Of a DNA stretch of 64,000 bases, positions 4,716 through 51,290 are shown in pieces. The DNA is from an uncultured Pelagibacteraceae bacterium (GTDB lineage: Bacteria > Pseudomonadota > Alphaproteobacteria > Pelagibacterales > Pelagibacteraceae): contig CACDSN010000001.1 in assembly GCA_902555465.1 (NCBI GenBank), positions 36,163-100,162 on the forward strand, in the 5' to 3' direction. The notes beneath the pieces were generated by a model, which made no database searches, had not been told where the DNA came from, and saw only the letters and a list, made by a program, of their open reading frames with translations. A program made the position numbers and the translations under genes. The stretch's first letter is position 1. The number at the start of each line of letters is the position of its first letter.

Positions 4716-4769
4716 TATTTATTCCTATATTATCTCTTAAAATATTTTGTTAAATTAAATTCAAAACTA

Positions 4770-5498: not shown

Positions 5499-5923
5499 TT
5501 TTCATTATCATTTATCCAAGGAATTAATGTTGTCTCAATTCCTTCCTCTTTTAGTTCTTTAACATCCCTAGTTGAGGCTTTTCCATAAATGCCTTTTTTT
5601 GATTTTTTATTTCCATAGTGAATTGATCTTGCCTCGTAAGAAAAGTTTTCACCTACATAATCAAAATTGTTTTTTATAAACCTTTGGAATTCTTTTATCT
5701 TGTATTTTACTTCTTTTTTTTTTTCTAATGTTTTTTGTTTACTTTCTGTTCTAAAATTTGAGGAAATTCTAGGAGACATAATAGATTTTTCTATTTTAAT
5801 TGAATTACAATTATTACATTTGATTAGTTTTAATTTTTTAAGCTTTTCAAATTCTTTTGAGGATGCAAACCAGCTATCAAAGGTATTATTACATTTTTTA
5901 CAATTCAATTGATACTTAATCAT
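5495..5923 (-). CDS. DUF1178 family zinc-ribbon protein
   Basis: The 142-residue protein starts with a zinc-ribbon-like pair of Cys-x2-Cys knuckles (LNCKKCNNTFDSWF at about 7-20 and IKCNNCNS near 35-42). A lysine-rich middle follows, then a C-terminal block with the FDYVGENFSYEARSIHYGN motif and a KEEGIETTLIPW ending. This combination is typical of DUF1178, found widely in alphaproteobacteria. No biochemical role is established. It is a short monocistronic gene convergent with ubiG and upstream of nothing on its own strand for about 40 bases. Confidence 0.85.
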   Translation of the reverse strand: MIKYQLNCKKCNNTFDSWFASSKEFEKLKKLKLIKCNNCNSIKIEKSIMSPRISSNFRTESKQKTLEKKKEVKYKIKEFQRFIKNNFDYVGENFSYEARSIHYGNKKSKKGIYGKASTRDVKELKEEGIETTLIPWINDNEN

Positions 5924-5961
5924 AATTCTTAAATAATAATAAAAAAAATATTTTCAATATA

Positions 5962-7257: not shown

Positions 7258-7318
7258 ATATGTTTAAAAATAAAATAATATGATTATATAAGATTCATTT
7301 AAATAACAAATAAATCAT

Positions 7319-33175: not shown

Positions 33176-34432
33176 ATGATTAACTCTGAGATCTATTACA
33201 AAAGTCTACAAAAAAAATACAGCAGAAGTATTTCATTGGGTTTATCTAGAGTTAAAAAAGCTTTAATTCTTTTAAATTCACCACATTTAAAATTAAAAAG
33301 GCCAATAAACATAATAGGTAGCGATGGCAAGTTCACTTGTGTTAAAGCGCTCCAATATTTCCTTCAAGCAAATGGTAATACTGCAACCGCGAACTTTTCA
33401 CCTCATCTTTATGATTTACGAACTCGTTTCTGGTTAAAAAATAGATTTATTTCTTTAAAAGAAATTAAAAAATATGAAAAAAAAATCTCAAAACTTAAAA
33501 TTAAACTTAGCTTATTTGAGGTTTTAACTTTAATTCATATCTTAGCGGCCTCAAAGGAAAATGCTGATTTTTCTTTGCAGGAAGCGGGTCTTCTGTTCAA
33601 GGGGGATGCATCCCGAGTATGGGATAAGCCTTTTATACAGATATGTACAAATTTAAATAAGCAGCATCTTGAGTGGGTTTATCCTAAAACTATTAATGAA
33701 ATTTGTAGACAAAAAGTTGGTTATATGAGCAATAATACAAATATTTATATAGGAAAACAGAAGCCAAAAGTTTTAAGAATAGTAAAAAAAATACTTAAAA
33801 AGAATAAGAGTAATATTACTTATCCCTCTTCTTGGAAAATAATTAATAAAAAGAAAAAGTTATTTTACAAGGACAATAAAAATTTAATTAAAATTAATTC
33901 TAATTATATTCACAGCAAAGGATTGATTGATAATCTCGGTTTAGCAATCAAAATTGCACTAGACTTAAATATAAAATCAAAAATAATTCAAAAAACTATA
34001 CCTAAAATTAAATTTGAAGGAAGATTAGATTATATTAAAAAAGGCAAACTAAGAAAATATTTAAATAAAAATGAAGCTCTTCTTTTAGATGGTGCTCATT
34101 CTAATGCTTCAGCACAAAACTTATATAGTTATCTAAAAACCTTGAAAGGACCTATTTACGGGGTCTGGGCCATGCAAAAAAATAAAATGCCATCACAATT
34201 TTTAAAAAATTTTCAAGGTGTATTTAAAAAAATAATAACTATGAATATTGATGGCGAGCCAAATTCATGTACTGCTGAAGATCTTAAAATAATTGCTATT
34301 AAAAGAGGATATTCTGTTGATAAAGCAAAAAATATTCGAGATGCTTTTAAAAAGTTAAGTTCAAATAAAGCAAAGACAATTTGTGTTTTTGGAAGCTTAT
34401 ACCACGTAGGAAATGTATTAAGTAAAAATTAA
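33176..34432 (+). CDS. folC: Folylpolyglutamate / dihydrofolate synthase, divergent
   Basis: The position after accD and before trxA is the classical folC site. The 418-residue protein keeps the Mur-ligase-like layout: an ATP loop IIGSDGKFTCVKAL (family GTNGKGS), the NFSPHLYDLRTRF block matching YTSPHL, FEGRLDYI, LLDGAHSNASA and a late GVWAMQKNKM. The glycine-rich loop and central motifs differ from consensus, so the protein is divergent, but the order of landmarks is right. It adds glutamates to folates. Its stop overlaps the convergent trxA stop by four bases. Confidence 0.87.
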   Translation: MINSEIYYKSLQKKYSRSISLGLSRVKKALILLNSPHLKLKRPINIIGSDGKFTCVKALQYFLQANGNTATANFSPHLYDLRTRFWLKNRFISLKEIKKYEKKISKLKIKLSLFEVLTLIHILAASKENADFSLQEAGLLFKGDASRVWDKPFIQICTNLNKQHLEWVYPKTINEICRQKVGYMSNNTNIYIGKQKPKVLRIVKKILKKNKSNITYPSSWKIINKKKKLFYKDNKNLIKINSNYIHSKGLIDNLGLAIKIALDLNIKSKIIQKTIPKIKFEGRLDYIKKGKLRKYLNKNEALLLDGAHSNASAQNLYSYLKTLKGPIYGVWAMQKNKMPSQFLKNFQGVFKKIITMNIDGEPNSCTAEDLKIIAIKRGYSVDKAKNIRDAFKKLSSNKAKTICVFGSLYHVGNVLSKN

Positions 34433-34807: not shown

Positions 34808-35944
34808 TTAATTCACGATACTTTTTATCTTTTTTTCTTCTGCATCTTCAATGCCTGGAACAACTTTTTCGTCTTCAGTAGTTGAATGAAGTTTGGAACC
34901 ACCTTCTAAACCATGATCATCTTTTAACTTGATAATCAAGTTTTCAAGCCCACTTTTTTTACCATAAGTACTATTAATTAAACTCTCCAAGGCATTTCTA
35001 TGTGTCTTAAAACTAGAAAATAATGTTTTGATGTTGTTTCTTACAACTGTGTATTTGTCCCAAACTGCCTCAGCATCTTTTACAACATTATCAACAATTG
35101 AAATTTGTTTGTGTTGATTTTTTAGACTTGTAACATTTGCAATTAAAGCCATAATAGATATTGGGCCTGCTAAAATAACCTTATTTTCTGCAGCAAAATC
35201 TAGCAATTCCTTGTCATACTCAATTGCAGACAAATAACATGTATCAAATGGCATAAACATAATTACATATTGAAATGACTTTAAATTATATAATTTAGTA
35301 TAATTTTTTTTGGCAAGACTTTTGATGTGATCCCTAACTGATGCTAAATGTTTATTTATATGTGCACTTCTAAGTTTAGGATCTTTTTCATTAGCAAAAT
35401 CCTCAAAGTTTTTAAGTGAAACCTTGCAATCAATAACAATACTATTTTCTTCAGGAAGGGTAATTATAAAATCAGGATTAACTCTTTTGCTTAATCCTGT
35501 AACTGGGTCTTTATTAATTTGTCCCTCTCTAACAGTAAAATCTTGATCTTTAACTAAACCGTTTTTTTCAAGTAATCTTTGTAATTTTTTTTCATTGTAT
35601 TCCCCTTGGTATTTAACATTGCCAACGAGCTTTTCATGAAAATTTCTATACTCTTGAACTAAAGAAGTATATTCCTGAAAACTTTTATCAGACACCTCTT
35701 TATAAGAGTCTGCGTTTTTTGAATTTTGTACTAAGATTTCTTTATCTTTTTTTAGTTGTTCAATATAGTCATCTTTCACGGTTATTGTATTTTCAAGATT
35801 ATTAATTTGACTATCTAGTTTAATAATTTCAGGACTATTAAGATCTATACCTTCTTGGTTTTTTTTATTTTTTAATATATAAAAAATTAAACCTCCTAAA
35901 ATTAGAACCAAAATAATTACTGTAAATGATAGAATTGTTGTCAT
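34808..35944 (-). CDS. rmuC: RmuC-domain protein, membrane-anchored
   Basis: The 378-residue protein has one N-terminal membrane helix (about 3-25), a coiled coil (about 40-110) and an RmuC domain with the nuclease-like core: GLSKRVNPDFIITLPEENSI, VIDCKVSLKNFEDF and MFMPFDTCYLSA. RmuC proteins are linked to limits on DNA rearrangement and have a predicted PD-(D/E)XK-like fold; substrate is not established. A strong ribosome site (AAAGGAG) precedes the ATG. It is the last gene of the leftward island operon, 16 bases after the ATPase/zinc-protease gene, so here it may serve that cluster. Confidence 0.85.
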   Translation of the reverse strand: MTTILSFTVIILVLILGGLIFYILKNKKNQEGIDLNSPEIIKLDSQINNLENTITVKDDYIEQLKKDKEILVQNSKNADSYKEVSDKSFQEYTSLVQEYRNFHEKLVGNVKYQGEYNEKKLQRLLEKNGLVKDQDFTVREGQINKDPVTGLSKRVNPDFIITLPEENSIVIDCKVSLKNFEDFANEKDPKLRSAHINKHLASVRDHIKSLAKKNYTKLYNLKSFQYVIMFMPFDTCYLSAIEYDKELLDFAAENKVILAGPISIMALIANVTSLKNQHKQISIVDNVVKDAEAVWDKYTVVRNNIKTLFSSFKTHRNALESLINSTYGKKSGLENLIIKLKDDHGLEGGSKLHSTTEDEKVVPGIEDAEEKKIKSIVN

Positions 35945-35960
35945 ATTTCTCCTTTATAAG

Positions 35961-37550
35961 TTAGTTTTTCATTAAATGCGACCATTGTTTAGAATATTTT
36001 TGAACACTCTTATTATTATCAATGCACTTTTGTATTAATACAGTAAGTGAGTCACTAAACTCTCTTGATCCATCATCATGACCTAAGGTATGTGATAGTT
36101 CATGTAAAAATACAGACATCATCTTGCCAAATGATTCGTTAAATAAAGTTTTGTGTAAATAAATCAATTTTGAATTATGATCTGACGAATTTTTTAATTC
36201 TCCTAAAATATCTTTACAAGTTATAGTTCTAAATTTTACCTCGTATAAAGGATCATCATATTCATCCCCTGAAAATAATTTTGAAAAACTTGGACTAATA
36301 CTCTTTGCGGCATCAAAACAAAAATTAATGGCTTTCTTTTCTCTTGTGGTTAATTCCATTGTTTTTTTGTTTTTAATTCTTTTTTCAGCAGCTTTCTTAT
36401 TTTTGATGAATTTATCTAGAGCAGATTCAACACCAAAATTTGTAAAATATGCTGGTAGTAGTTTTTTACTCTTTTTTTCTTTATTTGTTTTTTGTCTTAT
36501 CCAGTTTTGAACTTTAGTGGAGAACCAATCATTGTAGGAAATTTCTCTACTCCAAGTCCACCTGGACTCTGCGTAAAAACCTTCTTTAAATAGTTCTTTT
36601 AAATACTTATCATCTTTTAATCTTCCATATGAATTTGATGCAATTGCACTTAACAATAAATGTCCAGTAGACCATATATCTTTAGAATTTTCTAAAATAT
36701 ATCTTATGGCAACATTTCTGGGTAGATCGGCATAATAAAAACCAGATCTTGCGAATATTGAAAAAAATGTACTTTGTAGCTTTGTATCGAATGCTTGTCG
36801 ATCTCTGTCTATTTTTGTTTTCTTCTCTAAAGCGCTATAAGCTTTATCAATTGAGATAACGACAGGTATTCCTTTAATATCAACTCTTTTTAGACCCTTA
36901 TAAAACCCATAACCATTTTTTTCTGTAGATTTGTAAATGGTAATATCGTTATAAGAATGAAGGACCTCACCTATAACTGGATTCTTTGAATAAAAAAAGT
37001 TCCTTAAACCAAATTGAAAACTTTTTTTTAACTTTTTATCAATTGTATTTATAATTAAGTAATTTCCATCAATTTTATTAATTTTAAAATAATTATAAAC
37101 CAATGGTCTTAATTCTGTTTCCGGAACTTCTTTACCAACAGTAATAATTAAAGCTTTATCACCAGATAACAAAATAGGATTAAAAATTCCTATTCTTGCT
37201 AAATCTGAAAAACATTTTTTAATTCCTTCACCATGAGCACCAATTTGTCTGTATGATTTTTCTGATTTAGTGGAACCTATATAATATAGTCTCTCTAATG
37301 AGTACTCATTTGGTGCGTGAACTTTAATTTGGTCATCTTCTGTTTTGATTTTAATTTTATCTATCCCAATGTTAGCCTCCACACAACCATCGACCATATT
37401 TTGTAAACAATCTCTACTTAATTTATCATGATCCCAAACTTCTTCTCCCCAGGCGGTAGTAACTGCGCTTTCTACGCTTTTTATGTACTCTGCTTGATTG
37501 ATTTCTTTTAGTTCTAAAAGTAAATCTTTTAATTTTGAAATGTTATTCAT
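35961..37550 (-). CDS. GHKL-like ATPase domain fused to a metzincin-like zinc site
   Basis: I recognise two modules in this 529-residue protein. Residues about 30-200 resemble a GHKL (Hsp90/MutL-like) ATPase: an N-box RDCLQNMVDGC (46-56), a YIGSTKSEKS segment and the G2-type loop IGAHGEGIKKCF (103-114). The DxGxG motif is not evident (VHAPNEY), so ATP use is uncertain. Residues 483-493 read HELSHTLGHDD, an HExxHxxGxxD zinc-metalloprotease motif of metzincin type. The middle is Lys-rich. It is co-operonic with WGR, small-protein and RmuC genes. A stress- or phage-triggered protease is an inference from this architecture; no named family comes to mind. Confidence 0.75.
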   Translation of the reverse strand: MNNISKLKDLLLELKEINQAEYIKSVESAVTTAWGEEVWDHDKLSRDCLQNMVDGCVEANIGIDKIKIKTEDDQIKVHAPNEYSLERLYYIGSTKSEKSYRQIGAHGEGIKKCFSDLARIGIFNPILLSGDKALIITVGKEVPETELRPLVYNYFKINKIDGNYLIINTIDKKLKKSFQFGLRNFFYSKNPVIGEVLHSYNDITIYKSTEKNGYGFYKGLKRVDIKGIPVVISIDKAYSALEKKTKIDRDRQAFDTKLQSTFFSIFARSGFYYADLPRNVAIRYILENSKDIWSTGHLLLSAIASNSYGRLKDDKYLKELFKEGFYAESRWTWSREISYNDWFSTKVQNWIRQKTNKEKKSKKLLPAYFTNFGVESALDKFIKNKKAAEKRIKNKKTMELTTREKKAINFCFDAAKSISPSFSKLFSGDEYDDPLYEVKFRTITCKDILGELKNSSDHNSKLIYLHKTLFNESFGKMMSVFLHELSHTLGHDDGSREFSDSLTVLIQKCIDNNKSVQKYSKQWSHLMKN

Positions 37551-37848
37551 TTTCCCCTCTTGATTGGTTTATTTTTTTTGTTTCTTCTAATTCATCTTGA
37601 ATTACTTTGATTAAAGTCACTCCTTTATTATAAATATGAGCATCTCTCGAATCTTGTATAAATTTAAATACTTTCAAAGGTAAAAAATAAATAGAAAGGA
37701 TTAAATTTAGAAATTTTCTTTCAGAATAATATTTTTTCTTAGCTTTTTCAGATATTGATTTATGAAAGAAATATAAATCCCAATCATTTTTCCACATTTT
37801 ATAAAAAATCAATCTTTCTTTTAAAATATTTCTATATTTGCTTTGCAT
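37543..37848 (-). CDS. Small basic hypothetical protein
   Basis: The 101-residue product is rich in Lys, Tyr and Phe, with one moderately hydrophobic segment (FLNLILSIYFLPLKVFKFI, about 45-63) that may be an amphipathic or membrane-associated helix, then a charged C-terminus. I do not recognise a family. It overlaps the start of the ATPase/zinc-protease gene by eight bases and begins one base after the WGR gene stop, so it is translated as part of that operon. Confidence 0.65.
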   Translation of the reverse strand: MQSKYRNILKERLIFYKMWKNDWDLYFFHKSISEKAKKKYYSERKFLNLILSIYFLPLKVFKFIQDSRDAHIYNKGVTLIKVIQDELEETKKINQSRGENE

Positions 37849-37849
37849 A

Positions 37850-38059
37850 CTAATGTTGAATGTATCCTTTGTTAATTTTTTCTCTTATTTTTTTATCAGC
37901 AAATTTTTTTGCCTCCTGCTCATTTATAAATTCTTTGATTTGTTCCTGCGGATTTTGAATTCCAATTCTTCCAAAAACAACTTTTACTAAAATACCTTTT
38001 TGTGATATTTCCCAAAATTTATTTGAAACTTCGTTTTTAAATTCAAAATATTTTTTCAT
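37850..38059 (-). CDS. Small WGR-domain protein
   Basis: The 69-residue protein is one WGR-type domain: KYFEFKNEVSNKFWEISQKG, then VKVVFGRIGIQNPQEQIKEF with the GRIG core in place of WGR, and a helix EQEAKKFADKKIREKINKGY. WGR domains bind DNA ends or nucleic acids in PARPs and in bacterial MolR-type proteins. A full consensus ribosome site AGGAGG precedes the ATG, unusually strong for this window. It is the first gene of the leftward WGR / small protein / GHKL-zincin / RmuC operon and could be its DNA-sensing part (inference). Confidence 0.8.
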   Translation of the reverse strand: MKKYFEFKNEVSNKFWEISQKGILVKVVFGRIGIQNPQEQIKEFINEQEAKKFADKKIREKINKGYIQH

Positions 38060-38063
38060 TTTA

Positions 38064-38379
38064 ACCTCCTATATTTATTTTTTTATTAAAGTTATGATTT
38101 ATTGCATGATATTCCCTTCTCAGGGGAACTCTGATTTTCTTAAAAGGAAAGATAACTTCAAAGATTATCAGCTGTAATGCCTGGTTAAGACTAGCGAGAA
38201 AGGATAATAACCCAGACATTACTTCGTCCCCCTTTTTGAGAGCGCTTATGAAAGGTAAACAATTAGTTTTTTTTCCAGAGGGAGTTATGACAGAAAGTAG
38301 AGAAGAAAGGATCTCCCTCTTATTCAGCAAACTAATTATTTTATTTATCATAATACTACTTATATAGTCATTTTTACAC
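38064..38379. other. G+C-richer structured segment between divergent island operons
   Basis: This stretch stands out as richer in G and C than its surroundings. The leftward frame is open for 108 codons, but its last codons are made by the AGGAGG ribosome site of the WGR gene, and the forward strand is also open for 86 codons, so I cannot call either coding. Small inverted repeats are visible: TTCCC/GGGAA near 38112-38128, GATAA/TTATC near 38151-38169, and a perfect AGAGGGAG/CTCCCTCT pair at 38277-38284 and 38313-38320. It may be a structured leader or small RNA, or the relic of a gene. Confidence 0.4.
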
Positions 38380-38380
38380 G

Positions 38381-38438
38381 CTGTCAACAGTTATTTTTGA
38401 TTTGACATTTTTTTTTTACACTGTATAAACAGTATATA
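38381..38438 (+). promoter_or_regulatory. Near-consensus promoter with two CTGT/ACAG dyads
   Basis: A TTGACA box at 38402-38407 and a TATAAA box at 38424-38429, 16 bases apart, form the clearest sigma-70 type promoter in the window and point at the repressor-like gene starting at 38448. Two similar dyads lie beside it: CTGTCAACAG at 38381-38390 and ACTGTATAAACAGT at 38420-38433. Each is preceded by TTTTTACAC, so they form an imperfect direct repeat. The second covers the -10 box. They look like operators, perhaps for the S24-like product (autoregulation is inferred). Confidence 0.6.
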
Positions 38439-38447: not shown

Positions 38448-39932
38448 ATGAATTTAAATAAATTAAACAAAGTAATACGTTCAATTAGTGAAAAAACTAA
38501 AAACCGTGAATTACTAGAAAAAATTCTTAAAGAGTGCGGCATGAGCAGGTCTAACTGCAGTAATTTGATGGTTTATAATCGGGGATCCTCTTTTGATCAT
38601 TACGTTTATAGGTACAAAGAAGAGCAATTTCCTCGTGAATTTTCATACTTGTTTCTTAATGCAGCTTTTTCATCTCTATATTTAAAAAACTTAAAAAAAG
38701 TAAGAAATAAGAAAAAATCCTTAGAATATGTTAAAAAAAATAAAGATAGACTTTGGTATGACCAAAGTAAAAATTTTTATGAAATTATTTCTAATTGCAG
38801 AAATCAAGATATAAAAAATAAACTTATAATACCAGCTCTTGAATTGCACGCTCTAAATTTAATTAGGTTAGGTAACATGGATCAAAATAATAATTATAAT
38901 GAAAATTATGTTGAAAACTATCTAAGAATTTCCTTTTCAGATGCATTTAATTATATAGAAGAGTCAGATCAAGAAAACTTACAGAATGAACTTCCAACAA
39001 AAAAATTTAAACAATATGAAAAGTTAATACAAAATTTAAAAAACTTCTATCCAATTATAGAACATCTACGAAAAATTTTTATGAAAGAATTTCTTGCTCC
39101 TGATGATTATAAAAAAATAAAAGTTGTAACCCCAACATTAATCGGCTCTAGTAATTATGAAGATATGTTGTTTTCAAAAAGTTTTTTAAGAGATGAACTG
39201 AAAATATCTGACATAAATAATTTATTTATGTTGGTTATAGATGACGAAAATATGAAAGGTAGTTTTGAGGTAAATGACAAAGTATTGATACATGAACATC
39301 CAAGTTATCGATCATTAAAAGATAATAAATCACCTAAGAACAGCTCTTATCGATTTAAAGATGGTGTTTATGCAATTACAATTCCAGATTTTTCAAAAAA
39401 AAACAAACTCGGAGAAAAATTTGCAGTAAGAAGATTGCAATTTAATTATACATACCAAGGAGACTATGAAATACCTGAGTTTTTGCAAGAGGAGGCTGAA
39501 AAAGATATCAATAAAGTTTTTGCAAAAGGTATAGATAAAGTTAGTTTATTTCAGGTTGATGAATTAGTCCAAAAATATGGTATTGGAAATCCTTTGCTTG
39601 TTGAGAAGTTAAAACCAATAATTAATCTAGAAGAATCACAAGAAGATTTCTATTTTGGTAAAAAAGTTCAAAAAGATAAAAATCAAAAAGTTATGGTAAG
39701 TATTATTAGTGATAATCAAAAATATCGACCAATAACTGTTAACATCGACGCCTTAACTATTGTTGGAAAGGTAAAATGGAAATCTAGTTTTGCAAATGAA
39801 CTTCTTGAAAATAATGATTTTAGAACAAAAAATAATTTTTATGAACCAATGGATAAAAATGACTTGTTCGATGAAAAAGAAATACCTGAATTTGATTTAT
39901 TTTTTGACCAAAATAAAAAGGAGATAGCTTAA
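38448..39932 (+). CDS. Repressor-like protein with a degenerate, split S24 (LexA/CI) domain
   Basis: I recognise no full-length family for this 494-residue protein. Residues 259-332 resemble the start of a LexA/CI (S24) peptidase domain: MLVIDDENMKGSFEVNDKVL, then DGVYAITI and KFAVRRLQF. Residues 416-446 resemble its end: VSIISDNQKYRPITV and LTIVGKVKW. The catalytic Ser position reads Asn268 and the Lys position Arg328, so self-cleavage seems lost, and about 80 residues are inserted between the halves. The N-terminal 220 residues are helical and may bind DNA. It sits behind the dyad promoter and is coupled to the exonuclease gene (TAATGG). Confidence 0.6.
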   Translation: MNLNKLNKVIRSISEKTKNRELLEKILKECGMSRSNCSNLMVYNRGSSFDHYVYRYKEEQFPREFSYLFLNAAFSSLYLKNLKKVRNKKKSLEYVKKNKDRLWYDQSKNFYEIISNCRNQDIKNKLIIPALELHALNLIRLGNMDQNNNYNENYVENYLRISFSDAFNYIEESDQENLQNELPTKKFKQYEKLIQNLKNFYPIIEHLRKIFMKEFLAPDDYKKIKVVTPTLIGSSNYEDMLFSKSFLRDELKISDINNLFMLVIDDENMKGSFEVNDKVLIHEHPSYRSLKDNKSPKNSSYRFKDGVYAITIPDFSKKNKLGEKFAVRRLQFNYTYQGDYEIPEFLQEEAEKDINKVFAKGIDKVSLFQVDELVQKYGIGNPLLVEKLKPIINLEESQEDFYFGKKVQKDKNQKVMVSIISDNQKYRPITVNIDALTIVGKVKWKSSFANELLENNDFRTKNNFYEPMDKNDLFDEKEIPEFDLFFDQNKKEIA

Positions 39933-41395
39933 TGGAACAATTTACTTGTTACTTAGATGCTGAAACAACATCAGGATCACATATAAACGCAGATTTACTC
40001 TCTTACTCTGCAATACTTGTAAGAGATAAAGACTTAAAAATTGTTGATAGTATTGATTTATTTGCTCGACCTAGAATTTCTAGATCATATGAGTGTGATG
40101 CCTTATTAGTAAATGGCTTAAATCCATATGATATTTATGACAAAGAAAAACATACTTATAGTAATCACGGTATTGCAAAAAAACTCAGTGAAACATTTAC
40201 AAAATGGAAAAACAAAGGTCACGTTAAATTTAATGCTTATGCAGGGTTTAATTTTGACTTCCTATTAACTTCTCATACATGGTTTTCAAATTTATATAGC
40301 TTCCCATGGTTATTCTCTACAAATGCTTGCCAAATGGATACACTTCCTCTTGCAAGAAACATGGAATATTATAATCCAAATATATTAAAGACTGACATAA
40401 ACAAAAAAAATCATAAAATTTTTAAACTAGCTTCTTTATGTGCGATGAATGGTTTTCCTATTAAAGATAGCCACACAGCCAAGGATGATACACTTGGTTT
40501 AAAAAATTTAACTGAGTATTTAAAAAAAAATGATAGTGAACTATTTAATAAAAATTTACAATTTATTAACAAAAAAGATGTTTTACCTTACGTAAAAAAT
40601 CTAAAATATTTTTATACAACAGAAACTTTTTTTTCAAAAACAAGACAGTTTGCATGTTGTTTTTTAACTGAACATAGTTTCTACGCTGGATATATACTTG
40701 CTTTTGATCTAAAGCATGATCCGAAAGATATATTTGAAGGTAAGAGTAATCAAGAATTATCAAAACTTCTTTTTGCAACACCTGTAAAAATGAGAACTAT
40801 AAAATCAAATAGACTTCCTTTAATTTTAAAACCTGAAGAAAAATGGGTACAAAGTATACAAGATGAATATTCAGCTATTGGTAAAGATGAACTTGAAAAA
40901 AGAGCTGACTATATAATTAAAAATAGATCTGAGATTGCAACAAAGATAAATGTAATATTAAAAGATAAATTTGAAGAAAAAAGTTTAGATCAAACAAAAC
41001 TAAAACCTGAGGAAAAAATATTTGCTTTAAAACCTTCAAAAGACACTCAAAGATATATGAATGACTTTGTCATAGCAAATAAAATGGAAGAAAAACAAAG
41101 AATTGCTCAAAACTTCAATGGTGATGAAGATTTAAAACATCTATCTGAATTAATTTTGATTGATGAATATGGTAAAGAAGCTTTTGCTGATAAAGACTAT
41201 AAAAGAATTAGAAAAGGTATAAGTCAAAGACTACTTTCTACTAATAACGAAAGTTATCCTACAATACCTTCTCAATTTTTAAGAATTGATGAAATTAGAG
41301 TTCAAGAAAAACATGACAAAGAAAAATTAAAAAAAGTTGAGTTAATTAATAGTCATTTAGAAAAAATGTCTGAAGACCATGAAAAGTATCTATGA
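39932..41395 (+). CDS. Exonuclease I-like DEDDh 3'-5' exonuclease
   Basis: The 487-residue protein has the three DEDDh exonuclease motifs: CYLDAETTSGSH (residues 5-16, Asp and Glu), FNAYAGFNFDFLLTSHTW near 100-115, and KDSHTAKDDTLGLKNL near 180. Spacing and length resemble E. coli exonuclease I (SbcB), a single-strand 3'-5' DNA exonuclease. The second half has an SbcB-like LPLILKPEEKW stretch. A Lys/Glu-rich tail follows. A good ribosome site (AAGGAG) lies before the ATG. In this island it may process DNA ends for defence (inference); a plain core sbcB is less likely given its company. Confidence 0.8.
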   Translation: MEQFTCYLDAETTSGSHINADLLSYSAILVRDKDLKIVDSIDLFARPRISRSYECDALLVNGLNPYDIYDKEKHTYSNHGIAKKLSETFTKWKNKGHVKFNAYAGFNFDFLLTSHTWFSNLYSFPWLFSTNACQMDTLPLARNMEYYNPNILKTDINKKNHKIFKLASLCAMNGFPIKDSHTAKDDTLGLKNLTEYLKKNDSELFNKNLQFINKKDVLPYVKNLKYFYTTETFFSKTRQFACCFLTEHSFYAGYILAFDLKHDPKDIFEGKSNQELSKLLFATPVKMRTIKSNRLPLILKPEEKWVQSIQDEYSAIGKDELEKRADYIIKNRSEIATKINVILKDKFEEKSLDQTKLKPEEKIFALKPSKDTQRYMNDFVIANKMEEKQRIAQNFNGDEDLKHLSELILIDEYGKEAFADKDYKRIRKGISQRLLSTNNESYPTIPSQFLRIDEIRVQEKHDKEKLKKVELINSHLEKMSEDHEKYL

Positions 41396-41583
41396 CAATA
41401 ATTAATTCAGAAAAGATAGAAATAGAAATTCAAGAACAGAAAATAGAAAAACCAGGAGCTAAATATTTAGTATTGATTAAAACAAATAATAATGAACTTA
41501 AAATATATTCATCTAATAATAAGCCCTATGTTAGACATACTGAAGATTTGGGAAATATTGTAAAAGAAAAAACTATCTCTTAG
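41392..41583 (+). CDS. Small hypothetical protein
   Basis: The 63-residue product is acidic and strand-rich (KIEIEIQEQKIEKPGAKYLV), with no family I recognise. Its ATG overlaps the exonuclease stop by four bases (ATGA), and its stop overlaps that of the convergent PD-(D/E)XK gene by eleven bases. The coupling argues for a real gene, possibly a small partner of the exonuclease. Confidence 0.5.
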   Translation: MTIINSEKIEIEIQEQKIEKPGAKYLVLIKTNNNELKIYSSNNKPYVRHTEDLGNIVKEKTIS

Positions 41584-42259
41584 AAACCATCTCATAGAAA
41601 AGGTCTACCCTTTTCATAGCATCTTCCTGTAGTTTTATAAACTCTTGTCCTTCCACTTCAAATTTTTGAAAGGTCAAATCTGTTGAACACATCAAAATCA
41701 CACCTTTAGTAATATTTGAGTTAAAAACTTTATTATGAGCAAGGGAATATAGAGCCACCTGAAGTAGATATGAAGTAATCCACTCTTTTTTTTTTGGAGA
41801 TCGACTATTCTTGAAATCCAAAATTGCTTCTGCTCCTGAATAAATACCTACAGCATCACAAGTCCCTGAAAATTTTTGTGGGTACCAGAGGGTTGCTTCT
41901 ACACCATATATCTCTGTAAATTTTTCTTTAATTCCATGTTCAATTATTTCATTAGCCATTTTTTCAGCTAGATCGTCCTTTTCCAATAAATCTCCATTTA
42001 AACGATTTGTTAAAAAATTTTCTAATATTTTGTGCATAGCTGAGCCACGTGAAGTTGCTTCATTTGATATTCTCTGACTCTCCTCTTTTCCAACATCTGC
42101 TTGCCATTTACGTAAAGCTTCTTTATCTTTTTCGGGTTTAGTGAGCTCTAAAATTTCAGTACAACTTGGAAGTTTTTCATTATCAATAGAATAATACCTC
42201 ATGCCATTAATTATACTTCTGGATGATTTTGGATAATTATATATTTTATTCCATCTCAT
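41573..42259 (-). CDS. PD-(D/E)XK (RecB/Cas4/MGME1-like) nuclease
   Basis: The 228-residue protein has the RecB-type nuclease pattern: a GSAMHKILENFL segment (His near residue 74), GTCDAVGIY with the metal-binding Asp near 137, LDFKNSRS as the (D/E)xK site near 149, and the trailing motif YLLQVALYSLAHNK. This matches single-domain exonucleases of the Cas4/MGME1/phage-exonuclease group. It has its own promoter region divergent from the TerB-MORC operon and converges on the exonuclease I-like gene, so two nucleases sit head to head. Confidence 0.8.
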   Translation of the reverse strand: MRWNKIYNYPKSSRSIINGMRYYSIDNEKLPSCTEILELTKPEKDKEALRKWQADVGKEESQRISNEATSRGSAMHKILENFLTNRLNGDLLEKDDLAEKMANEIIEHGIKEKFTEIYGVEATLWYPQKFSGTCDAVGIYSGAEAILDFKNSRSPKKKEWITSYLLQVALYSLAHNKVFNSNITKGVILMCSTDLTFQKFEVEGQEFIKLQEDAMKRVDLFYEMVSKR

Positions 42260-42725: not shown

Positions 42726-43916
42726 ATGAAATATACTACAATATTAGAAAAATTAAGATCTCACGGATACACGCTCCCACAATCCTTGGCGGAACTTGCT
42801 GATAACAGCATTACTCATAACGCTAAAAATATCTGGGTATACATGTTCTGGAGTGATGATACTGGAAAAAATTCTTTTATCATGGTTGTAGATGATGGAA
42901 ATGGTATGGATGAGAACGAATTATTAAATAGAGCCTTAACTTTCCCTGATCAAAAAAATAATTACAAAGGAAAAAATAATCACTCAGTTTTTGGTGCGGG
43001 GTTAAAAACTGGTTCATTTAATCATTGTAGATCTATTACTATCATTACTAAAAAAAATGAGTTACTTAAAAAAACCTTAAACTTTAAAGATGGTATTACT
43101 GATAATATGCCGAGTTGTATTAATCATAAATTTATTAAGTCCCATTTAGAAAAATTTGCAAAACAAGAGTCTGGAACTATTATCTTATGGACTGATTTAG
43201 ATAGAATTACAGAACTTCGGGCTGTTGATAGAGGTCCTAATTTTTATGATGACTGTGATAAATCTAAAAAACATTTCAAATTAGTTTATCATAAGTATTT
43301 ATTGGAAAAAAAAATAAATTTATACTTTAACGGAACTGATGAAGTTAATAGGACTAAAGCTTTTGATCCTTTTTACAAAAGCAACACAGAAACTATAAAG
43401 CTACCAGATTCAGAAATAAGTTTTTTAAAGGGTGGAGCTACTACTTTGAAACCATATATAATCCCAATAGACACAGGTAAAGAAAATTTAGGCAAAAGTA
43501 AAAACGATCTTCAAGGATTGTATTTTTTAAGAAATAATAGAGTGATTGATTATGGTGGTTGGTTTGATCTTGGAGAAAAGAATGTAGATAAAATATGGGC
43601 TTCAAATGAAAGATATAATAGGCTTAGAATAGAAGTTACAATACCAATTGAAACTAGTAAAGATTGGATAACGACAGATAAGACCAAGGTAATTATACCA
43701 GGGTATGCAGAAAGCAAAATTCGGAAATCTTTAGTTCAAATTAGAAAAGATTATTTAGAAAAAATAGGTCAAATGAGAGAAGATCAAGAAAAGGAACCTG
43801 TAAATGAAACATTGAAACAAAAAAGAGAATTAAATAGAATTATCAATAATGAAAATTTGGATGATGAAGATTTATTAAAACTTAAAGAGTATATTAATAA
43901 AATAAAAAAAAATTAA
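42726..43916 (+). CDS. MORC/paraMORC-like GHKL ATPase
   Basis: The 396-residue protein carries a full GHKL ATPase site: the N-box PQSLAELADNSITH (19-31), the G1 motif VVDDGNGMDE (54-63) and the G2 motif FGAGLKTGSF (89-98), then an S5-like second domain. The lack of a hinge or transmitter domain and the neighbours Z1, DUF4420 and AIPR place it with the MORC-like ATPases that Iyer, Abhiman and Aravind linked to prokaryotic restriction-modification systems. Such ATPases probably clamp or remodel DNA for the helicase and nuclease. The Z1 gene begins 9 bases downstream. Confidence 0.88.
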   Translation: MKYTTILEKLRSHGYTLPQSLAELADNSITHNAKNIWVYMFWSDDTGKNSFIMVVDDGNGMDENELLNRALTFPDQKNNYKGKNNHSVFGAGLKTGSFNHCRSITIITKKNELLKKTLNFKDGITDNMPSCINHKFIKSHLEKFAKQESGTIILWTDLDRITELRAVDRGPNFYDDCDKSKKHFKLVYHKYLLEKKINLYFNGTDEVNRTKAFDPFYKSNTETIKLPDSEISFLKGGATTLKPYIIPIDTGKENLGKSKNDLQGLYFLRNNRVIDYGGWFDLGEKNVDKIWASNERYNRLRIEVTIPIETSKDWITTDKTKVIIPGYAESKIRKSLVQIRKDYLEKIGQMREDQEKEPVNETLKQKRELNRIINNENLDDEDLLKLKEYINKIKKN

Positions 43917-43925
43917 ATTAATTAA

Positions 43926-46900
43926 ATGAGTGAAGAGTTAAATAATCAAAAACAATTGTTAAATGCATATAAATTAACATTTGCTTCAAAGAAAGGTTTT
44001 TCTAATCCATCCTCATGGTATCCTCGCACTGCTAAAGAAATAGATAATTTGCTTAAATCATTTATAAAAGATTTCTCAGATGCAAAAAAATTTGAAAAAG
44101 AACTTAAAGATTTTTTAGAAACTTCTTATGCCCAAGTAATAGAAAACGATGTTACTTTAATTGCAAAAAAAAGAGATCATATCCCATGGCTCGATGATAA
44201 AAGAAAAGTTTGGAAAAATGCTAACAGTACAAACTCACAATTCGCTTGGTATAAAAGCAAATCAGGATTTAAATTAGGTAACGCATTTGATGATCTGGAT
44301 GACTCTACTGATGAAATATTATCATTATTAGAAGATCCTACAAGACATGGGAAATGGATGACCAGAGGTATGATCGTTGGAGATGTACAATCTGGGAAAA
44401 CTTCACATTATAATGGTTTAATTAATAAAGCTGTTGATACCGGATATAAATTAATAATTGTTTTAAGTGGCTCGTATAATGCGCTAAGAGCACAAACTCA
44501 AAAAAGAATTGAAGATAATACAATAAAGACAACACAACCAGGTCAGCTTAATAAAGTTTTTTTTGCAACATCAAAACCTGATTATATTTACAAAGAAGGA
44601 CTAAGAATAATTCAAGCAGAAAATGATTTTAGTGCTTCTACAGCTAAACAAATATCTATGACAAATTTAGATCCCACCATCTTAGTTGTAAAAAAACATG
44701 TTTCAGTTTTAGCCAATATTTTGATGTGGCTAAATAAACAAGATGGAATGGAAAAAACTGAAAAAGAATGGGAATGGAAAGAGTCAAAATGGAAAAATGA
44801 TACTCATAGACAACTTTTACCAAAACATCAATTGGCATGTGATCAACCTTTATTAGTTATCGACGATGAATGTGACAGTGCATCAATCGATATTTCTCCT
44901 AGAAAAACTAAAGGAACGCAAGACGAATGGGATGAGGAAAAACAAGAAGAATTTAAAAAAATAGATCCTTCAAAAACCAATCAGCTCATTCGAAGAATAT
45001 TAATGTGCTTTAAAAGAAGTACATACATTGGCTATACAGCCACTCCACTCGCAAATGCTTTTATAAATTATTCTTCATACAAGCATGATGAAGGCTTAGA
45101 TATTTTTCCTAAAGATTTTATTAGGTTGTTAAAAAGATATGAGGATCATATTGGTCCTGAAGATGTTTTTGGAATAGCTGAAAAAAATTATGATCCTGAT
45201 GAGGAAGTTGTAAGTTTATCAGAAAATATCGATAAAAATGAATTTCCACAGGTTAAATGGGTATATGATTATAGAAATGATCATGATGATCCAATATTTA
45301 AAAAAGAAGATGGCACCATTGATGAAGAGGCCAGAGATAAAAAATATAGAGAAGAAGCTAAAGATGGGGATGAAATAAAAGGATGGTTGCCACTTTACCA
45401 TAAAAATGGAGCACAATGTTTATATAAAGAGGAAGATATTATTCCACCGAGTTTAAGAGAGGCTATAAATACTTTTTTAATAAATATAGCAGTAAGATAT
45501 TTAAGAAAAAAAGTTAACAATCATAATTCAATGCTTATTCACGTGAGTAGATTTAAAAATGTTCAAGGCAATGTATTTAATCAGGTTAAAAAATATTTAG
45601 ATCAATTAAAAAAAAATGTGCAATATGGGCAAGACAAAAAAATTAAAGAGATTATCAAAAATGAATTTGATAATATTTGGAATCATGATATTCAAAAAAA
45701 TATTAATTTAACTAAATTTCCTGAAAGTAAAAAGTTTAAATTTGATTCTATCTGGAATAAAATATTAGAAGTAATTACTTCAGAAAATAATCCTTTGGAC
45801 ATAGTTCAAATAAATAGTCAATCAGATGATATTCTGGATTATGATCGTCATAAAAATGGTTGGAACGTAATTGTTATTGGTGGTGCAGCAATATCAAGAG
45901 GTATAACATTAGAGGGATTAACGGTAAGCTATTTTACACGTGTTGCTAAACTACCAACTTCTGACACACTTATTCAAATGGGAAGGTGGTTTGGATATAG
46001 AAAAGGATATGAAGACTTATGGCGAGTATATGTACCAAAAGTTTTGCATATTTTGTTTAGGCAGTTTTCATTTACAATGGAAAAAGCTAGAGAAAAATTT
46101 CAGGATCTTTCTGAACAAAATAGAAGTCCAGCAGACTATGCAATTGAAGTTCCATGTTTTCCTGGGTGGAATCTTGTTTCAAAAACAAAAGCCAGAGATA
46201 TAAAAATTATACCTGAACCATATTCATCCTTTACAGCTACAAGCAGAACTCCCGTTATGTATTATAAAGATGAAAAAAGAATTGAGAATATAGAGTTAAC
46301 TAAAAGTTTAATAAATAGTTTACCATCTAAATTTGAAACAGAAATCGAAATTAATAAAAAACTTAAAGAAGGAAAGATTTGGAATCCAATACCATTTGAT
46401 GATGAAAAAATTGATAATACTCTACCAATTGAGGAAATTAGAGAAAAAGTTTTTAAAAAAGGATATGATCAGGTAAAATTGAGAAAAGCTTATTTATGGA
46501 GAAACGTAGATGTAAATAAGATAATTAAATACTTTGGTAATTATAAGTGTCCACCTACTCAAGAATGGACATGTAAAATTATTGCAGCACAAATTAAAGC
46601 ATTAAATGAATTTAAAAAAATAAGCAATTGGAACATAGGAATTTTTAGTATTAATCAAGGACCAAAATATTCAAACTTAAAATTTGAAAAAAATAATATA
46701 GAAGTAGCTTTGCAACAAAGATCAATTAAAACTCCATATAGTAATTTTTTTTCTATAAAAACCTTATCAGATCCAAATGCAGAATTTGCAGATGTTGATG
46801 CAGAGGAGTACAATAAAGGAATAGAAGGATGGTTAAACTTGTACAAAAAAACTGGAAAGTGTGTAATTAAGAGACGAAAGATTAATTTTCTACCCGCGCA

Positions 46901-47147
46901 ATTTAAACAAAAACTTAGACAGAGAAGAAAAGAAGGTCTCCTTATAATTTATCCGTGGAGCACAAAATTTAAAGAGCAATTTAATCCAGAAAAAGATGTT
47001 TATATTGGTTGGCAAATTATAACTCCTCCTAGCAGAAATGAGGATGATGATGATAAACTAATCTACAATGTTGCAATGAATCAAGCTGCTAGAGAACATA
47101 GAGAAGCTGAGTATAAGGAATTTTTTAATCCAGATCTTTTCTCATAA
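43926..47147 (+). CDS. Z1-domain superfamily II helicase-like ATPase
   Basis: The 1073-residue protein is the largest in the island. Walker A is VGDVQSGKTSHYNG (residues 151-164), Walker B LLVIDDECDSASID near 310, motif III-like YIGYTATPLANAF near 360, and the RecA2 motifs GGAAISRGITLEGLTVSYF and LIQMGRWFGYR near 650-690. These are hallmarks of Z1, the endonuclease-associated helicase-like family. It is expected to translocate on or remodel DNA for the nuclease next door. Genes flank it within 10 bases on both sides. Confidence 0.93.
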   Translation: MSEELNNQKQLLNAYKLTFASKKGFSNPSSWYPRTAKEIDNLLKSFIKDFSDAKKFEKELKDFLETSYAQVIENDVTLIAKKRDHIPWLDDKRKVWKNANSTNSQFAWYKSKSGFKLGNAFDDLDDSTDEILSLLEDPTRHGKWMTRGMIVGDVQSGKTSHYNGLINKAVDTGYKLIIVLSGSYNALRAQTQKRIEDNTIKTTQPGQLNKVFFATSKPDYIYKEGLRIIQAENDFSASTAKQISMTNLDPTILVVKKHVSVLANILMWLNKQDGMEKTEKEWEWKESKWKNDTHRQLLPKHQLACDQPLLVIDDECDSASIDISPRKTKGTQDEWDEEKQEEFKKIDPSKTNQLIRRILMCFKRSTYIGYTATPLANAFINYSSYKHDEGLDIFPKDFIRLLKRYEDHIGPEDVFGIAEKNYDPDEEVVSLSENIDKNEFPQVKWVYDYRNDHDDPIFKKEDGTIDEEARDKKYREEAKDGDEIKGWLPLYHKNGAQCLYKEEDIIPPSLREAINTFLINIAVRYLRKKVNNHNSMLIHVSRFKNVQGNVFNQVKKYLDQLKKNVQYGQDKKIKEIIKNEFDNIWNHDIQKNINLTKFPESKKFKFDSIWNKILEVITSENNPLDIVQINSQSDDILDYDRHKNGWNVIVIGGAAISRGITLEGLTVSYFTRVAKLPTSDTLIQMGRWFGYRKGYEDLWRVYVPKVLHILFRQFSFTMEKAREKFQDLSEQNRSPADYAIEVPCFPGWNLVSKTKARDIKIIPEPYSSFTATSRTPVMYYKDEKRIENIELTKSLINSLPSKFETEIEINKKLKEGKIWNPIPFDDEKIDNTLPIEEIREKVFKKGYDQVKLRKAYLWRNVDVNKIIKYFGNYKCPPTQEWTCKIIAAQIKALNEFKKISNWNIGIFSINQGPKYSNLKFEKNNIEVALQQRSIKTPYSNFFSIKTLSDPNAEFADVDAEEYNKGIEGWLNLYKKTGKCVIKRRKINFLPAQFKQKLRQRRKEGLLIIYPWSTKFKEQFNPEKDVYIGWQIITPPSRNEDDDDKLIYNVAMNQAAREHREAEYKEFFNPDLFS

Positions 47148-47152
47148 AATTT

Positions 47153-48142
47153 ATGAACAATGCAGAATTTCAAAAAAAATTAAGTGATGCATGGCTTGAA
47201 TTAACCAAAAAAAGACAAAAAGATAAAAAATTTGAGGGGGAACAGGCCGGTATAAAAGCTTACGATATCTATTGGCTAACTCTTAATCAAAATAATCTTC
47301 CTGGAATAATTATAAATTTAAAAGAAGGACATAGTTTTAACTTTTCAAAATTCCCCAAAGGTAAAGGATGGAATTTCATTAATAGTGGAAATAAAATTAC
47401 CATGAACGTTAATGAGGAAAAATATAAAGATTTTTTTATTAAATTGACAAATCTTATTCTTGCAAAAATATATTTAGAAAATCTTATTGGAGAAAAAAGT
47501 GTTAAATGTTTTTTGGAAAATTTGTTCTCTGCTAAAGATTTTTTTGAAGAGGATAACGTACCAAGAAAACTTACAAAAGAATCTCAGATAGGTTTATATG
47601 GTGAGATTTATGTTTTAAGTAAAATTCTTGTAAAAAAACTGGCAAATGAAATAGCAATTTCTGCATGGACTGGTCCTTCAAAAAAACATGATTTCACAAC
47701 AGAAAATAAATTGATCGAAGTTAAAACAACTGTGACCAACACAAAAAAAATTAATACATCAAGCACTAATCAAATAGCACCTGTTTTTGATAAAAAACTG
47801 GAACTTGTATTTTTACAAATGAAGAAATCAAATACAGGACTATCACTTAATGAAATAATAGATGAGTACACAAATAAGTTAAAAAGTGAATCTGAATTGT
47901 TGTATAATGATTTTTTATTAAAATTAATACAATGCAACTACTTAGATATGCATCGAGAAGAATATAAAGAAAAATATTTAATAGATAAAAATAATTTTTA
48001 TGAAATTAGAGAAAATTTTCCTTATATTAAAAGAGTAGAAACTCCAGTTGAAATATCTGATCTTTCTATAACATATAAGATTGATCTTGATAAATGTGAA
48101 GAATTCAGAATAAATGAGGACAATTTATTGGAAAAACTATGA
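47153..48142 (+). CDS. DUF4420 PD-(D/E)XK endonuclease
   Basis: The 329-residue protein has a PD-(D/E)XK core: an N-terminal Glu in IGLYGEIYVLSKIL near residue 147, the Asp in KKHDFTTENK near 181 and the IEVKTTV active site near 190. The pattern matches DUF4420, the nuclease-fold partner of Z1 and MORC-like ATPases. It is the likely cutting subunit. The stop overlaps the AIPR start (ATGA). Confidence 0.88.
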   Translation: MNNAEFQKKLSDAWLELTKKRQKDKKFEGEQAGIKAYDIYWLTLNQNNLPGIIINLKEGHSFNFSKFPKGKGWNFINSGNKITMNVNEEKYKDFFIKLTNLILAKIYLENLIGEKSVKCFLENLFSAKDFFEEDNVPRKLTKESQIGLYGEIYVLSKILVKKLANEIAISAWTGPSKKHDFTTENKLIEVKTTVTNTKKINTSSTNQIAPVFDKKLELVFLQMKKSNTGLSLNEIIDEYTNKLKSESELLYNDFLLKLIQCNYLDMHREEYKEKYLIDKNNFYEIRENFPYIKRVETPVEISDLSITYKIDLDKCEEFRINEDNLLEKL

Positions 48143-50187: not shown

Positions 50188-51207
50188 TTAACTAGCTTTT
50201 TTATTATTTATATATTTATTTTCATCTAATAAAAGATAGCTAACTATTTTATAACAAATTTTTTCTACAACATTAATTGGAACTGCATTACCTGCTTGTT
50301 GATATGCATATGTTTTTTTAACAGGTATTTTAAATTTTTCTGGAAAGCCTTGTAGTCTGAAAGCCTCTCTTGGTGAGAGCATTCTTGGATTTTTATTTTC
50401 ACCCCTATATATCAAACATTCCCCTCCATCTTTTCCATATCTTGAAGATATTGTCCTTGTAAATTTATCACTTGGATACGTCATTTTATATCCAAAACCT
50501 TTGCCCGCTTTTTCATTTCTTAATTTTCTCTTTTTATGACTTTTCCAAAGAAGATCAGAAATTACATATTCTTTATTTGGATATAAATCTAAAAAATCTT
50601 CGACTTTTGTTTTCTTATATGTTGGTTTTGGATAAACAAATTCACTATTTTTATTTAAAAATCCTACAATAAAAATTCTTGTTCTTTTTTGTGCCAAACC
50701 AAAGTCTTTTGCATCTAAAACTTCAGGTTCAGGTACATAATAATTTTTTCTAAGTAACTTAAGAATTAATTTTAAAGCATTTCCATTATCATAGTTTTTT
50801 AAATGCTGAACATTTTCTAAAAGAAAAGCTTTAGGTTTTTTTTTATTAAGTATTTCCAATATATTAAAAAATAAGTTTCCCTGGTCTTTGTCTTTAAAAC
50901 CATGACTTCTTTTAAGGAAATTTCTATTTGAAATTCCCGCTTTCGAAAAAGGCTGACAAGGAAATCCTGCAAGCAGAATATCATGATCAGGTATTTTTTT
51001 ATTTATTTCATTTATTTTCACAGTTTTTATATCTTCTAATAAAGGTGTATTGGGGAAATTAGCATTATAAGTCTTTTGACAATAAGAGTTTAAATCTGAA
51101 TACAACTTACACTCATCAATAAGTCCTAATTTTTTAATTGCTTTATTTAGCGCAATTCTCATTCCACCAACTCCAGCAAAAAGATCGACAGAGGTAATTT
51201 TTTTCAT
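50188..51207 (-). CDS. DNA cytosine-5 methyltransferase
   Basis: The 339-residue protein has the C5-methylase motifs in order: I (VDLFAGVGGMRIAL), IV with the catalytic Cys (AGFPCQPFSKAG), VI (LLENVQHL), VIII (AQKRTRIFIVG), IX (LSPREAFRLQGFP) and X (YQQAGNAVPINV). The target domain is short, so the site is probably 4 to 6 bases. I chose the ATG at 51207, just before motif I; ATGs at 51225, 51234 and 51267 would add up to 20 residues. It is the likely protective enzyme of the MORC/Z1/DUF4420/AIPR system, although transcribed against it. Confidence 0.93.
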   Translation of the reverse strand: MKKITSVDLFAGVGGMRIALNKAIKKLGLIDECKLYSDLNSYCQKTYNANFPNTPLLEDIKTVKINEINKKIPDHDILLAGFPCQPFSKAGISNRNFLKRSHGFKDKDQGNLFFNILEILNKKKPKAFLLENVQHLKNYDNGNALKLILKLLRKNYYVPEPEVLDAKDFGLAQKRTRIFIVGFLNKNSEFVYPKPTYKKTKVEDFLDLYPNKEYVISDLLWKSHKKRKLRNEKAGKGFGYKMTYPSDKFTRTISSRYGKDGGECLIYRGENKNPRMLSPREAFRLQGFPEKFKIPVKKTYAYQQAGNAVPINVVEKICYKIVSYLLLDENKYINNKKAS

Positions 51208-51290
51208 ATTTGATTCTTTTTTCATTATATTCATTTTCAGAACAAATTTCAGTCTTAATAAAAACATTTTGATTTGCTTTAATCAATTTT

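What the first reader, a model, noticed from the sequence alone, without database searches (positions are those of the whole stretch)
34808..38059. Unrecognised operon: WGR protein, small protein, GHKL-like/zinc-protease fusion, RmuC
Four leftward genes with 1-16 base gaps or overlaps join a DNA-binding-type WGR domain, an ATPase-like module fused to an HExxHxxGxxD zinc site, and a membrane-anchored RmuC nuclease-fold protein. I know no described defence or repair system with this set. A sensing (WGR), switching (GHKL), protease-output and DNA-processing logic is plausible, so this is the best candidate for a new system here. The domain calls are from motifs; the system idea is inference.
Basis: partly seen in the sequence, partly recalled or inferred. 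Interest (0 to 1): 0.75.

Follow-up and report, generated by a model that had tools for sequence, protein, structure and literature searches.

The report
SAR11 RmuC nuclease cassette with protease
A small fraction of SAR11 ocean bacteria swap their ordinary RmuC/exonuclease DNA-handling genes for a larger, horizontally exchanged gene cassette that adds a DNA-binding WGR protein, an Hsp90-like protein with a probable metal-protease end, and a structured RNA leader; it looks like a distant, unrecognised cousin of the Shield anti-phage system, but no function has been shown.

Summary
The four genes are real, and the operon is kept in at least 11 other SAR11 genomes. The unit is larger than described: a divergent pair (HTH/S24-like regulator + ExoI-type DEDDh exonuclease) faces WGR, a 101-aa protein, the 529-aa protein and membrane-anchored RmuC. 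RmuC and ExoI are not special to it: nearly all SAR11 carry them at this same trx–hisG locus. But the cassette's RmuC and ExoI are separate, strongly supported clades, so cassette alleles travel together and replace the resident ones. WGR and the 529-aa protein co-occur in 397 genomes (7 both, 2 and 4 alone; p = 4e-11). A GHKL fold is supported for the 529-aa N-half (no G1 box anywhere); the HExxH end is conserved even in a 24%-identical homologue, but its fold stayed unresolved. The "108-aa ORF" upstream of WGR is not coding: it is a structured leader RNA whose CU-loop hairpin recurs, with changed but paired stems, in three other lineages. An MZA defence system lies next door. Closest precedent: Shield II, a membrane RmuC nuclease plus a metallopeptidase regulator. 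Best reading: an inducible RmuC-based defence cassette gated by the GHKL-peptidase; function untested.

The parts
34808..35944 (-). RmuC: N-terminal membrane helix + PD-(D/E)XK-type RmuC domain (PDFI...VIDCK site)
   Evidence: PF02646 4.6e-50; TM segment and site retained in cassette members; only RmuC of this genome
35961..37550 (-). GHKL-like + HExxH protein (529 aa), 'GHKLZn'
   Evidence: AF2/Foldseek Hsp90/RIIA-like N-half; invariant HExxHxxG..DG in 16 homologues incl. a 24% identical one; 19/5/110 substitutions by codon position
37543..37848 (-). 101-aa protein with a central hydrophobic stretch; small partner, also next to RmuC in a genome where GHKLZn was not found
   Evidence: conserved in L004-L014, L102, L068; weak relative in L103; 6/4/16 substitutions
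37850..38059 (-). single-domain WGR protein (69 aa)
   Evidence: PF05406 4.5e-15; co-occurrence with GHKLZn Fisher p=4e-11
38058..38360 (-). non-coding structured leader RNA (replaces the mechanical 108-aa ORF 38061-38387)
   Evidence: no codon-position bias 16/9/13; fold z -2.65; three-sequence consensus with 3 two-sided changes
38246..38356 (-). leader hairpin 1: outer 13-bp stem, inner 8-bp stem (38277-38320), CU-rich loop UCCUUUCU...CUUUCUG
   Evidence: z -4.48; same design in L103, L026, L027 with changed, paired stems
38174..38222 (-). leader hairpin 2: 11-bp stem, similar AUCCUUUCU loop
38381..38460 (-). divergent promoter region with palindromes ACTGTTTATACAGT (38420-38433) and CTGTTGACAG (38381-38390): probable operators
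   Evidence: sequence; other loci carry TTGTCA-N2-TGACAA at the equivalent place; formal promoter scan not above chance
38448..39932 (+). probable repressor: S24-like C-terminus lacking the Ser/Lys dyad, HTH-like N-terminus (inferred by eye)
   Evidence: PF00717 1.3e-5; alignment; divergent partner in all 11 loci L004-L014
39932..41395 (+). ExoI/SbcB-like DEDDh exonuclease, cassette allele
   Evidence: NF008746 1.3e-14; D9 E11 D109 H181 D186 invariant; cassette clade 100/100
41573..42259 (-). PD-(D/E)XK nuclease, resident SAR11 gene of this locus
   Evidence: PF12705 2.4e-7; in most genomes between RmuC and ExoI

Best explanation
This is a horizontally exchanged RmuC cassette of SAR11 that replaces the resident RmuC-nuclease-ExoI genes between trx/folC and hisG, and it most likely works as an inducible defence (or selfish-DNA control) system of the Shield type. 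Proposed logic: the HTH/S24-like protein represses both divergent promoters; WGR reads abnormal DNA (ends, nicks, replication intermediates of phage); the GHKL half of the 529-aa protein changes conformation on that signal and unleashes its HExxH peptidase; the peptidase acts on the membrane-held RmuC encoded 16 bases downstream (releasing or removing it), so RmuC and ExoI degrade DNA; the leader RNA tunes translation. Shown: gene set, cassette exchange, co-inheritance, GHKL fold prediction, conserved catalytic motifs, structured leader. Inferred: defence role, repression, sensing, protease-to-RmuC step, RNA function.
For: Gene order kept in 11 genomes. Cassette RmuC clade (12 rows) and ExoI clade (13 rows), both 100/100, against 29 resident genomes with the hisG-RmuC-PDEXK-ExoI-trx type of order, while accD needs 7 label changes on its tree. 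WGR x GHKLZn p=4e-11. The locus also carries MzaB-E, a methyltransferase and other restriction/defence-like genes. RmuC keeps TM anchor and PD...DxK site; ExoI keeps DEDDh. Precedent: Shield ShdA is a membrane RmuC nuclease, apparently toxic when unanchored, and its neighbour ShdB is a metallopeptidase-fold protein that binds ShdA and lowers its level; the authors themselves suggest release by cleavage (PMC10270631).
Against: RmuC, ExoI and the PDEXK nuclease are housekeeping-like in SAR11, so the cassette could be a repair variant. L102 has the operon without GHKLZn, so the peptidase is not essential. No G1 box, so ATP binding is doubtful. Zincin fold unresolved. No viral, phage or plasmid homologue. 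GHKLZn in G944 has no RmuC on its contig. No phage data.
Confidence: 0.42

Rival explanations
1. Allelic variant of a SAR11 DNA-repair/recombination locus: RmuC, ExoI and accessory nucleases process ends and limit recombination or DNA uptake; WGR and the GHKL protein tune this, with no dedicated anti-phage role.
For: RmuC in 48/61 relatives at the same locus next to ExoI and PDEXK; cassette genomes keep a single RmuC, the cassette's, where tested (G000, G022, G043), so it probably also does the resident's job; WGR and BRCT (L027) are repair-type domains.
Against: Patchy distribution (9/397), allele swapping, own regulator, neighbouring MZA and methyltransferase genes are typical of defence islands.
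Confidence: 0.3
2. The HExxH protein is the activator of the operon, not of RmuC: it cleaves the divergent HTH/S24-like regulator (ImmA/IrrE-like logic), switching on both transcripts.
For: A regulator with a degenerate S24 domain (Ser and Lys lost) is divergently encoded in all 11 loci and cannot self-cleave in the window; palindromic operators in the shared promoter region.
Against: L102 keeps the regulator and lacks GHKLZn; L103 likewise; most regulator homologues have lost the S24 region; no ImmA/IrrE family hit.
Confidence: 0.2
3. The 529-aa protein is a non-enzymatic Hsp90/RIIA-like scaffold; both the ATPase and peptidase activities are lost.
For: G1 box missing everywhere; C-terminal fold not recovered; third-ligand spacing varies.
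Against: H482, E483, H486, G489 and DG are invariant over 24% identity; N-box and G2 are kept.
Confidence: 0.15
4. Chance neighbours with no joint function.
For: The locus is a recombination hotspot where genes come and go.
Against: Order and tight spacing kept among proteins only 36-69% identical; co-occurrence and congruent clades.
Confidence: 0.04

Closest known systems
Shield II/III (ShdA + ShdB), Pseudomonas anti-phage system (PMC10270631)
   Same: Membrane-anchored RmuC-domain nuclease encoded beside a metallopeptidase-type protein; patchy, in defence islands.
   Different: ShdB is M15-like with no GHKL domain; Shield has no WGR, ExoI, regulator or leader RNA and was reported only in Pseudomonas; here the RmuC also replaces a resident housekeeping RmuC.
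RTasRmuC / RTasSbcB models of PADLOC (DRT-associated)
   Same: RmuC and ExoI of the window hit them (1e-44, 2e-23).
   Different: No reverse transcriptase was seen among the scanned locus genes; the hits reflect general RmuC/SbcB homology.
Phage RIIA and Hsp90/TRAP1 GHKL proteins
   Same: Foldseek matches of the N-terminal region.
   Different: GHKLZn lacks the G1 box and ends in an HExxH module not reported for RIIA in the literature searched.
WGR proteins (PARPs, MolR-type)
   Same: One WGR domain.
   Different: WGR alone, 69 aa, no catalytic partner in the same chain.

Membership tests
Shield | RmuC domain with N-terminal membrane anchor (ShdA) | tested here: met
   PF02646 4.6e-50 and hydrophobic helix at residues 4-21
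Shield | ShdB: M15-type metallopeptidase | tested here: not met
   No peptidase family hit for the 529-aa or 101-aa protein; HExxH is not the M15 motif (established knowledge)
Shield | Anti-phage activity and non-specific DNase of RmuC domain | not testable with these tools
   needs bench work
RmuC family | RmuC domain with PD-(D/E)XK site | tested here: met
   PDFI...VIDCK
GHKL ATPases | N-box (E/D..N..D) | tested here: met
   RD/E-x-x-QN-x-x-D conserved
GHKL ATPases | G1 box DxGxG | tested here: not met
   absent in all aligned homologues
GHKL ATPases | G2 box and Bergerat fold | tested here: met
   GxxGEG invariant; Foldseek to Hsp90/topoisomerase II/RIIA, lid region low confidence
Zincin/metzincin peptidases | HExxH with third ligand | tested here: inconclusive
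   HExxHxxG..DG invariant, but spacing +6 or +5 to Asp
Zincin/metzincin peptidases | Zincin fold | tested here: inconclusive
   pLDDT about 50
Exonuclease I (SbcB) | DEDDh catalytic residues | tested here: met
   D9 E11 D109 H181 D186 invariant in 10 sequences; NF008746 is below its curated cut-off
DRT (UG reverse transcriptase systems) | reverse transcriptase gene | tested here: not met
   none among the scanned neighbouring genes; whole genome not scanned for RT

The most novel reading that the evidence does not exclude
A new kind of RNA-controlled, WGR-sensing immune cassette in SAR11 in which an Hsp90-like conformational switch carries its own metalloprotease and licenses a membrane-tethered RmuC nuclease, built by replacing the host's own RmuC/ExoI genes with dedicated alleles.
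Probability: 0.25. Interest if true: 0.85.

Novelty: new variant of a known kind. Interest (0 to 1): 0.57.

Why it matters
SAR11 is among the most abundant cells in the sea and is heavily infected by phages, yet no paper in the held library links Pelagibacter to RmuC, and a search on SAR11, defence systems and islands brought no description of this locus (titles and abstracts only). If right, the resident SAR11 RmuC locus is a defence hotspot where housekeeping nucleases are swapped for regulated versions. It also gives a natural test of how RmuC nucleases are held in check: a second, unrelated peptidase beside a membrane RmuC, after Shield. The CU-loop leader hairpin is an RNA element not in Rfam.

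Tried and rejected
Homologues in phages, plasmids and viral contigs: none. PDB sequence search: no convincing hit (a weak adamalysin match, E 0.13, at the HExxH helix). Profile of nine sequences incl. Isolated C-terminal domain model: failed, pLDDT 49. Rfam on the leader: no hit. 108-aa ORF as a gene: rejected by codon-position counts. Hairpin as a genome-wide element: other sequence matches in 61 genomes lie outside the cassette; those examined are in or beside coding genes without this hairpin. An unrelated 10-bp hairpin with a similar loop lies in L061, not pursued. RmuC-ExoI linkage as a sign of the four-gene system: rejected, it is ancestral in SAR11. Published GHKL-zincin fusions: none found. 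Automatic alignment of the hairpins misplaced the stems, so pairs were counted on hand-set stems.
Full report
WHAT IS THERE. The window comes from a SAR11 (Pelagibacteraceae) genome of 1.16 Mb in 39 contigs, 92% complete (nearest named relatives). The four leftward ORFs are as described, with a 1-base gap, an 8-base overlap and a 16-base gap. WGR (4.5e-15) and RmuC (4.6e-50) are firm; the 529-aa and 101-aa proteins match no Pfam, NCBIfam, PADLOC or PHROG family above chance. Divergently, 38448-39932 has an S24-like C-terminus and 39932-41395 is an ExoI/SbcB-like exonuclease.

THE 529-aa PROTEIN. Homologues keep an N-box (R-D/E-x-x-Q-N-x-x-D), a G2-type GxxGEG and an invariant DRxR motif (D247-R250 of the alignment numbering), but none has the G1 box DxGxG. 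AlphaFold2 with 15 sequences gave mean pLDDT 73.7, good for about residues 1-370, low in the lid (88-107) and C-terminus. Foldseek matches are TRAP1/Hsp90, phage T6 topoisomerase II ATPase and yeast Hsp90 in the PDB (best E 1.2e-4) and many RIIA/HATPase proteins among viral models. So a GHKL-type fold is supported, ATP use is not. The C-terminal HExxHxxG..DG..xFS motif is invariant in 16 sequences, including a 24%-identical homologue from another class (G944). In three divergent members the Asp is one residue closer, which breaks the strict metzincin spacing. A model of the C-terminal domain alone failed (pLDDT 49). 'Probable metallopeptidase' rests on motif conservation only.

CONSERVATION OF THE OPERON. 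A genome-collection scan found 11 further SAR11 loci. L004-L014 keep divergent regulator+ExoI, WGR, the 101-aa protein, GHKLZn and RmuC; in L013 my ORF list misses WGR. Many add a ~135-aa protein in front, and a ~192-aa protein plus a ~1120-aa Cas4/RNase H/helicase-type protein behind. The window form lacks these; no ~1120-aa protein was found in its genome. In 397 Pelagibacterales genomes GHKLZn occurs in 9 (6 of 151 high-quality ones) and WGR in 11. Seven have both, two and four have one: Fisher p = 4e-11 (this treats genomes as independent, which related genomes are not, and takes the two 397-genome draws to be the same). The two GHKLZn-only genomes are divergent (G461, G043). Of the WGR-only ones, G722 (L102) has the full operon but no GHKLZn, G753 (L103) has ExoI-regulator, a 127-aa protein, RmuC and WGR, G539 is cut by a contig end, and G512 is another context. 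GHKLZn is therefore a usual but dispensable member.

THE LOCUS. RmuC is in 48 of 61 relatives (18 of 19 high-quality), and without GHKLZn it lies in the same place: hisS-hisZ-hisG-RmuC-PDEXK-ExoI-trx><folC, or ExoI-RmuC-trx in the other family (his gene names are my reading of the neighbouring ORFs). So RmuC and ExoI are resident genes. In cassette genomes the resident alleles are gone: the window's genome has a single RmuC, the cassette's. Trees show cassette RmuC (11 GHKLZn genomes + L102) and cassette ExoI (11 + L102 + L103) as 100/100 clades, with L026+L027 a second clade in both. Long branches (L015, L103) are unsure. Flanking genes are mosaic: accD needs 7 label changes on its tree, while a very divergent folC allele goes with the cassette in 10 genomes but not in L012 or L102. 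The simplest account is exchange of the whole block by recombination in shared flanks.

DEFENCE CONTEXT. PADLOC/NCBIfam place MzaB (7e-36), MzaC (1e-107), MzaD (2e-16) and MzaE (1e-86) at 42726-50187, directly beyond the cassette, followed by a C5 methyltransferase. Other genomes hold methyltransferase- and helicase-like genes in the same gap (L007, L008, by appearance).

REGULATION AND A LEADER RNA. The divergent regulator's S24 region in the window reads DENM...AVRRLQ, without the Ser and Lys of active S24 peptidases; most relatives have lost this region. Its N-terminus looks HTH-like by eye, without a family hit. The shared promoter region has palindromes: ACTGTTTATACAGT and CTGTTGACAG in the window, TTGTCAAATGACAA in L006-L011. 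Between this and WGR lies a 108-aa mechanical ORF. Against L004 its substitutions fall 16/9/13 over codon positions, whereas WGR has 2/0/11, GHKLZn 19/5/110 and RmuC 24/12/69. It is not coding. It folds well (z -2.65 for 303 nt; -4.48 for hairpin 1) and the fold is kept in L004 and L005 with three two-sided changes, though L004 alone has only z -1.16. The hairpin has an inner 8-bp stem and a 28-nt loop UCCUUUCU...CUUUCUG. The same design stands upstream of the cassette in L103, L026 and L027 (z -5.0, -5.2, -9.8). The inner 8-bp stem, in the five sequences counted, is fully paired with more than one pair type at 7 of 8 positions; L103 keeps 4 pairs plus a long outer stem. The loop was spotted first and the stems afterwards; the shuffled control gives 0.8 such hairpins with a stem of 6 or more per 1.1 Mb of held loci. 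L006-L014 and L102 lack it. Function is unknown; cis-control of translation is a guess.

MECHANISM. The nearest tested precedent is Shield (PMC10270631): ShdA is a membrane-bound RmuC nuclease, clones without the anchor could not be obtained, and ShdB, a metallopeptidase-fold neighbour, binds ShdA and lowers its level; the authors raise release by cleavage as a possibility. Here a probable metallopeptidase is encoded 16 bases before a membrane RmuC. I therefore propose that the 529-aa protein controls RmuC, with WGR as DNA sensor and ExoI as co-nuclease, under a repressor. Every functional step is inference. It works like Shield at most; it is not filed as Shield, because the ShdB M15 feature is not met.

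VERDICT. A real, unrecognised, horizontally exchanged cassette; larger than reported and built on resident genes; with a new structured leader RNA. Function likely but not shown to be defence.

Noticed in passing
window 42726-50187 (+): MZA-type defence system (MzaB-E homologues; MzaA not sought) in a SAR11 genome, adjacent to the cassette.
   Followed up: partly
window 50188-51267 (-): C5 cytosine DNA methyltransferase (PF00145 1.9e-79) after the MZA genes.
   Followed up: no
window 33176-34432 (+) and loci L004-L014: A very divergent folC allele (about 28% identical to the usual SAR11 one) travels with the cassette in 10 genomes but not in L012 or L102.
   Followed up: partly
L027 6574-7190: WGR and a BRCT protein encoded side by side near a divergent cassette; both domains occur in PARPs.
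   Followed up: no
L026 2176-3126, L027 11210-12187: ARPP-1 domain protein (PF20208 2e-57 in L026) between GHKLZn and RmuC in the second cassette type.
   Followed up: no
L062 (G012) 3349-9825: Another variant of the locus: p192-like, DUF2130, 694-aa protein, p135-like, ExoI, RmuC.
   Followed up: no
L044 6353-7912 (-): Distant GHKL+HExxH homologue beside large two-component-type sensor genes in another class.
   Followed up: partly
leader loop 38304-38311 (-) and L033 13197 (-): The loop motif UCCUUUCU equals the 3' end stretch around the anti-Shine-Dalgarno of this genome's own 16S rRNA (CCTCCTTTCT); may be chance.
   Followed up: no
L061 10300-10450 (+): Strong nested hairpin (-43.7 kcal/mol for 150 nt) beside another defence-like gene group in G004.
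   Followed up: no
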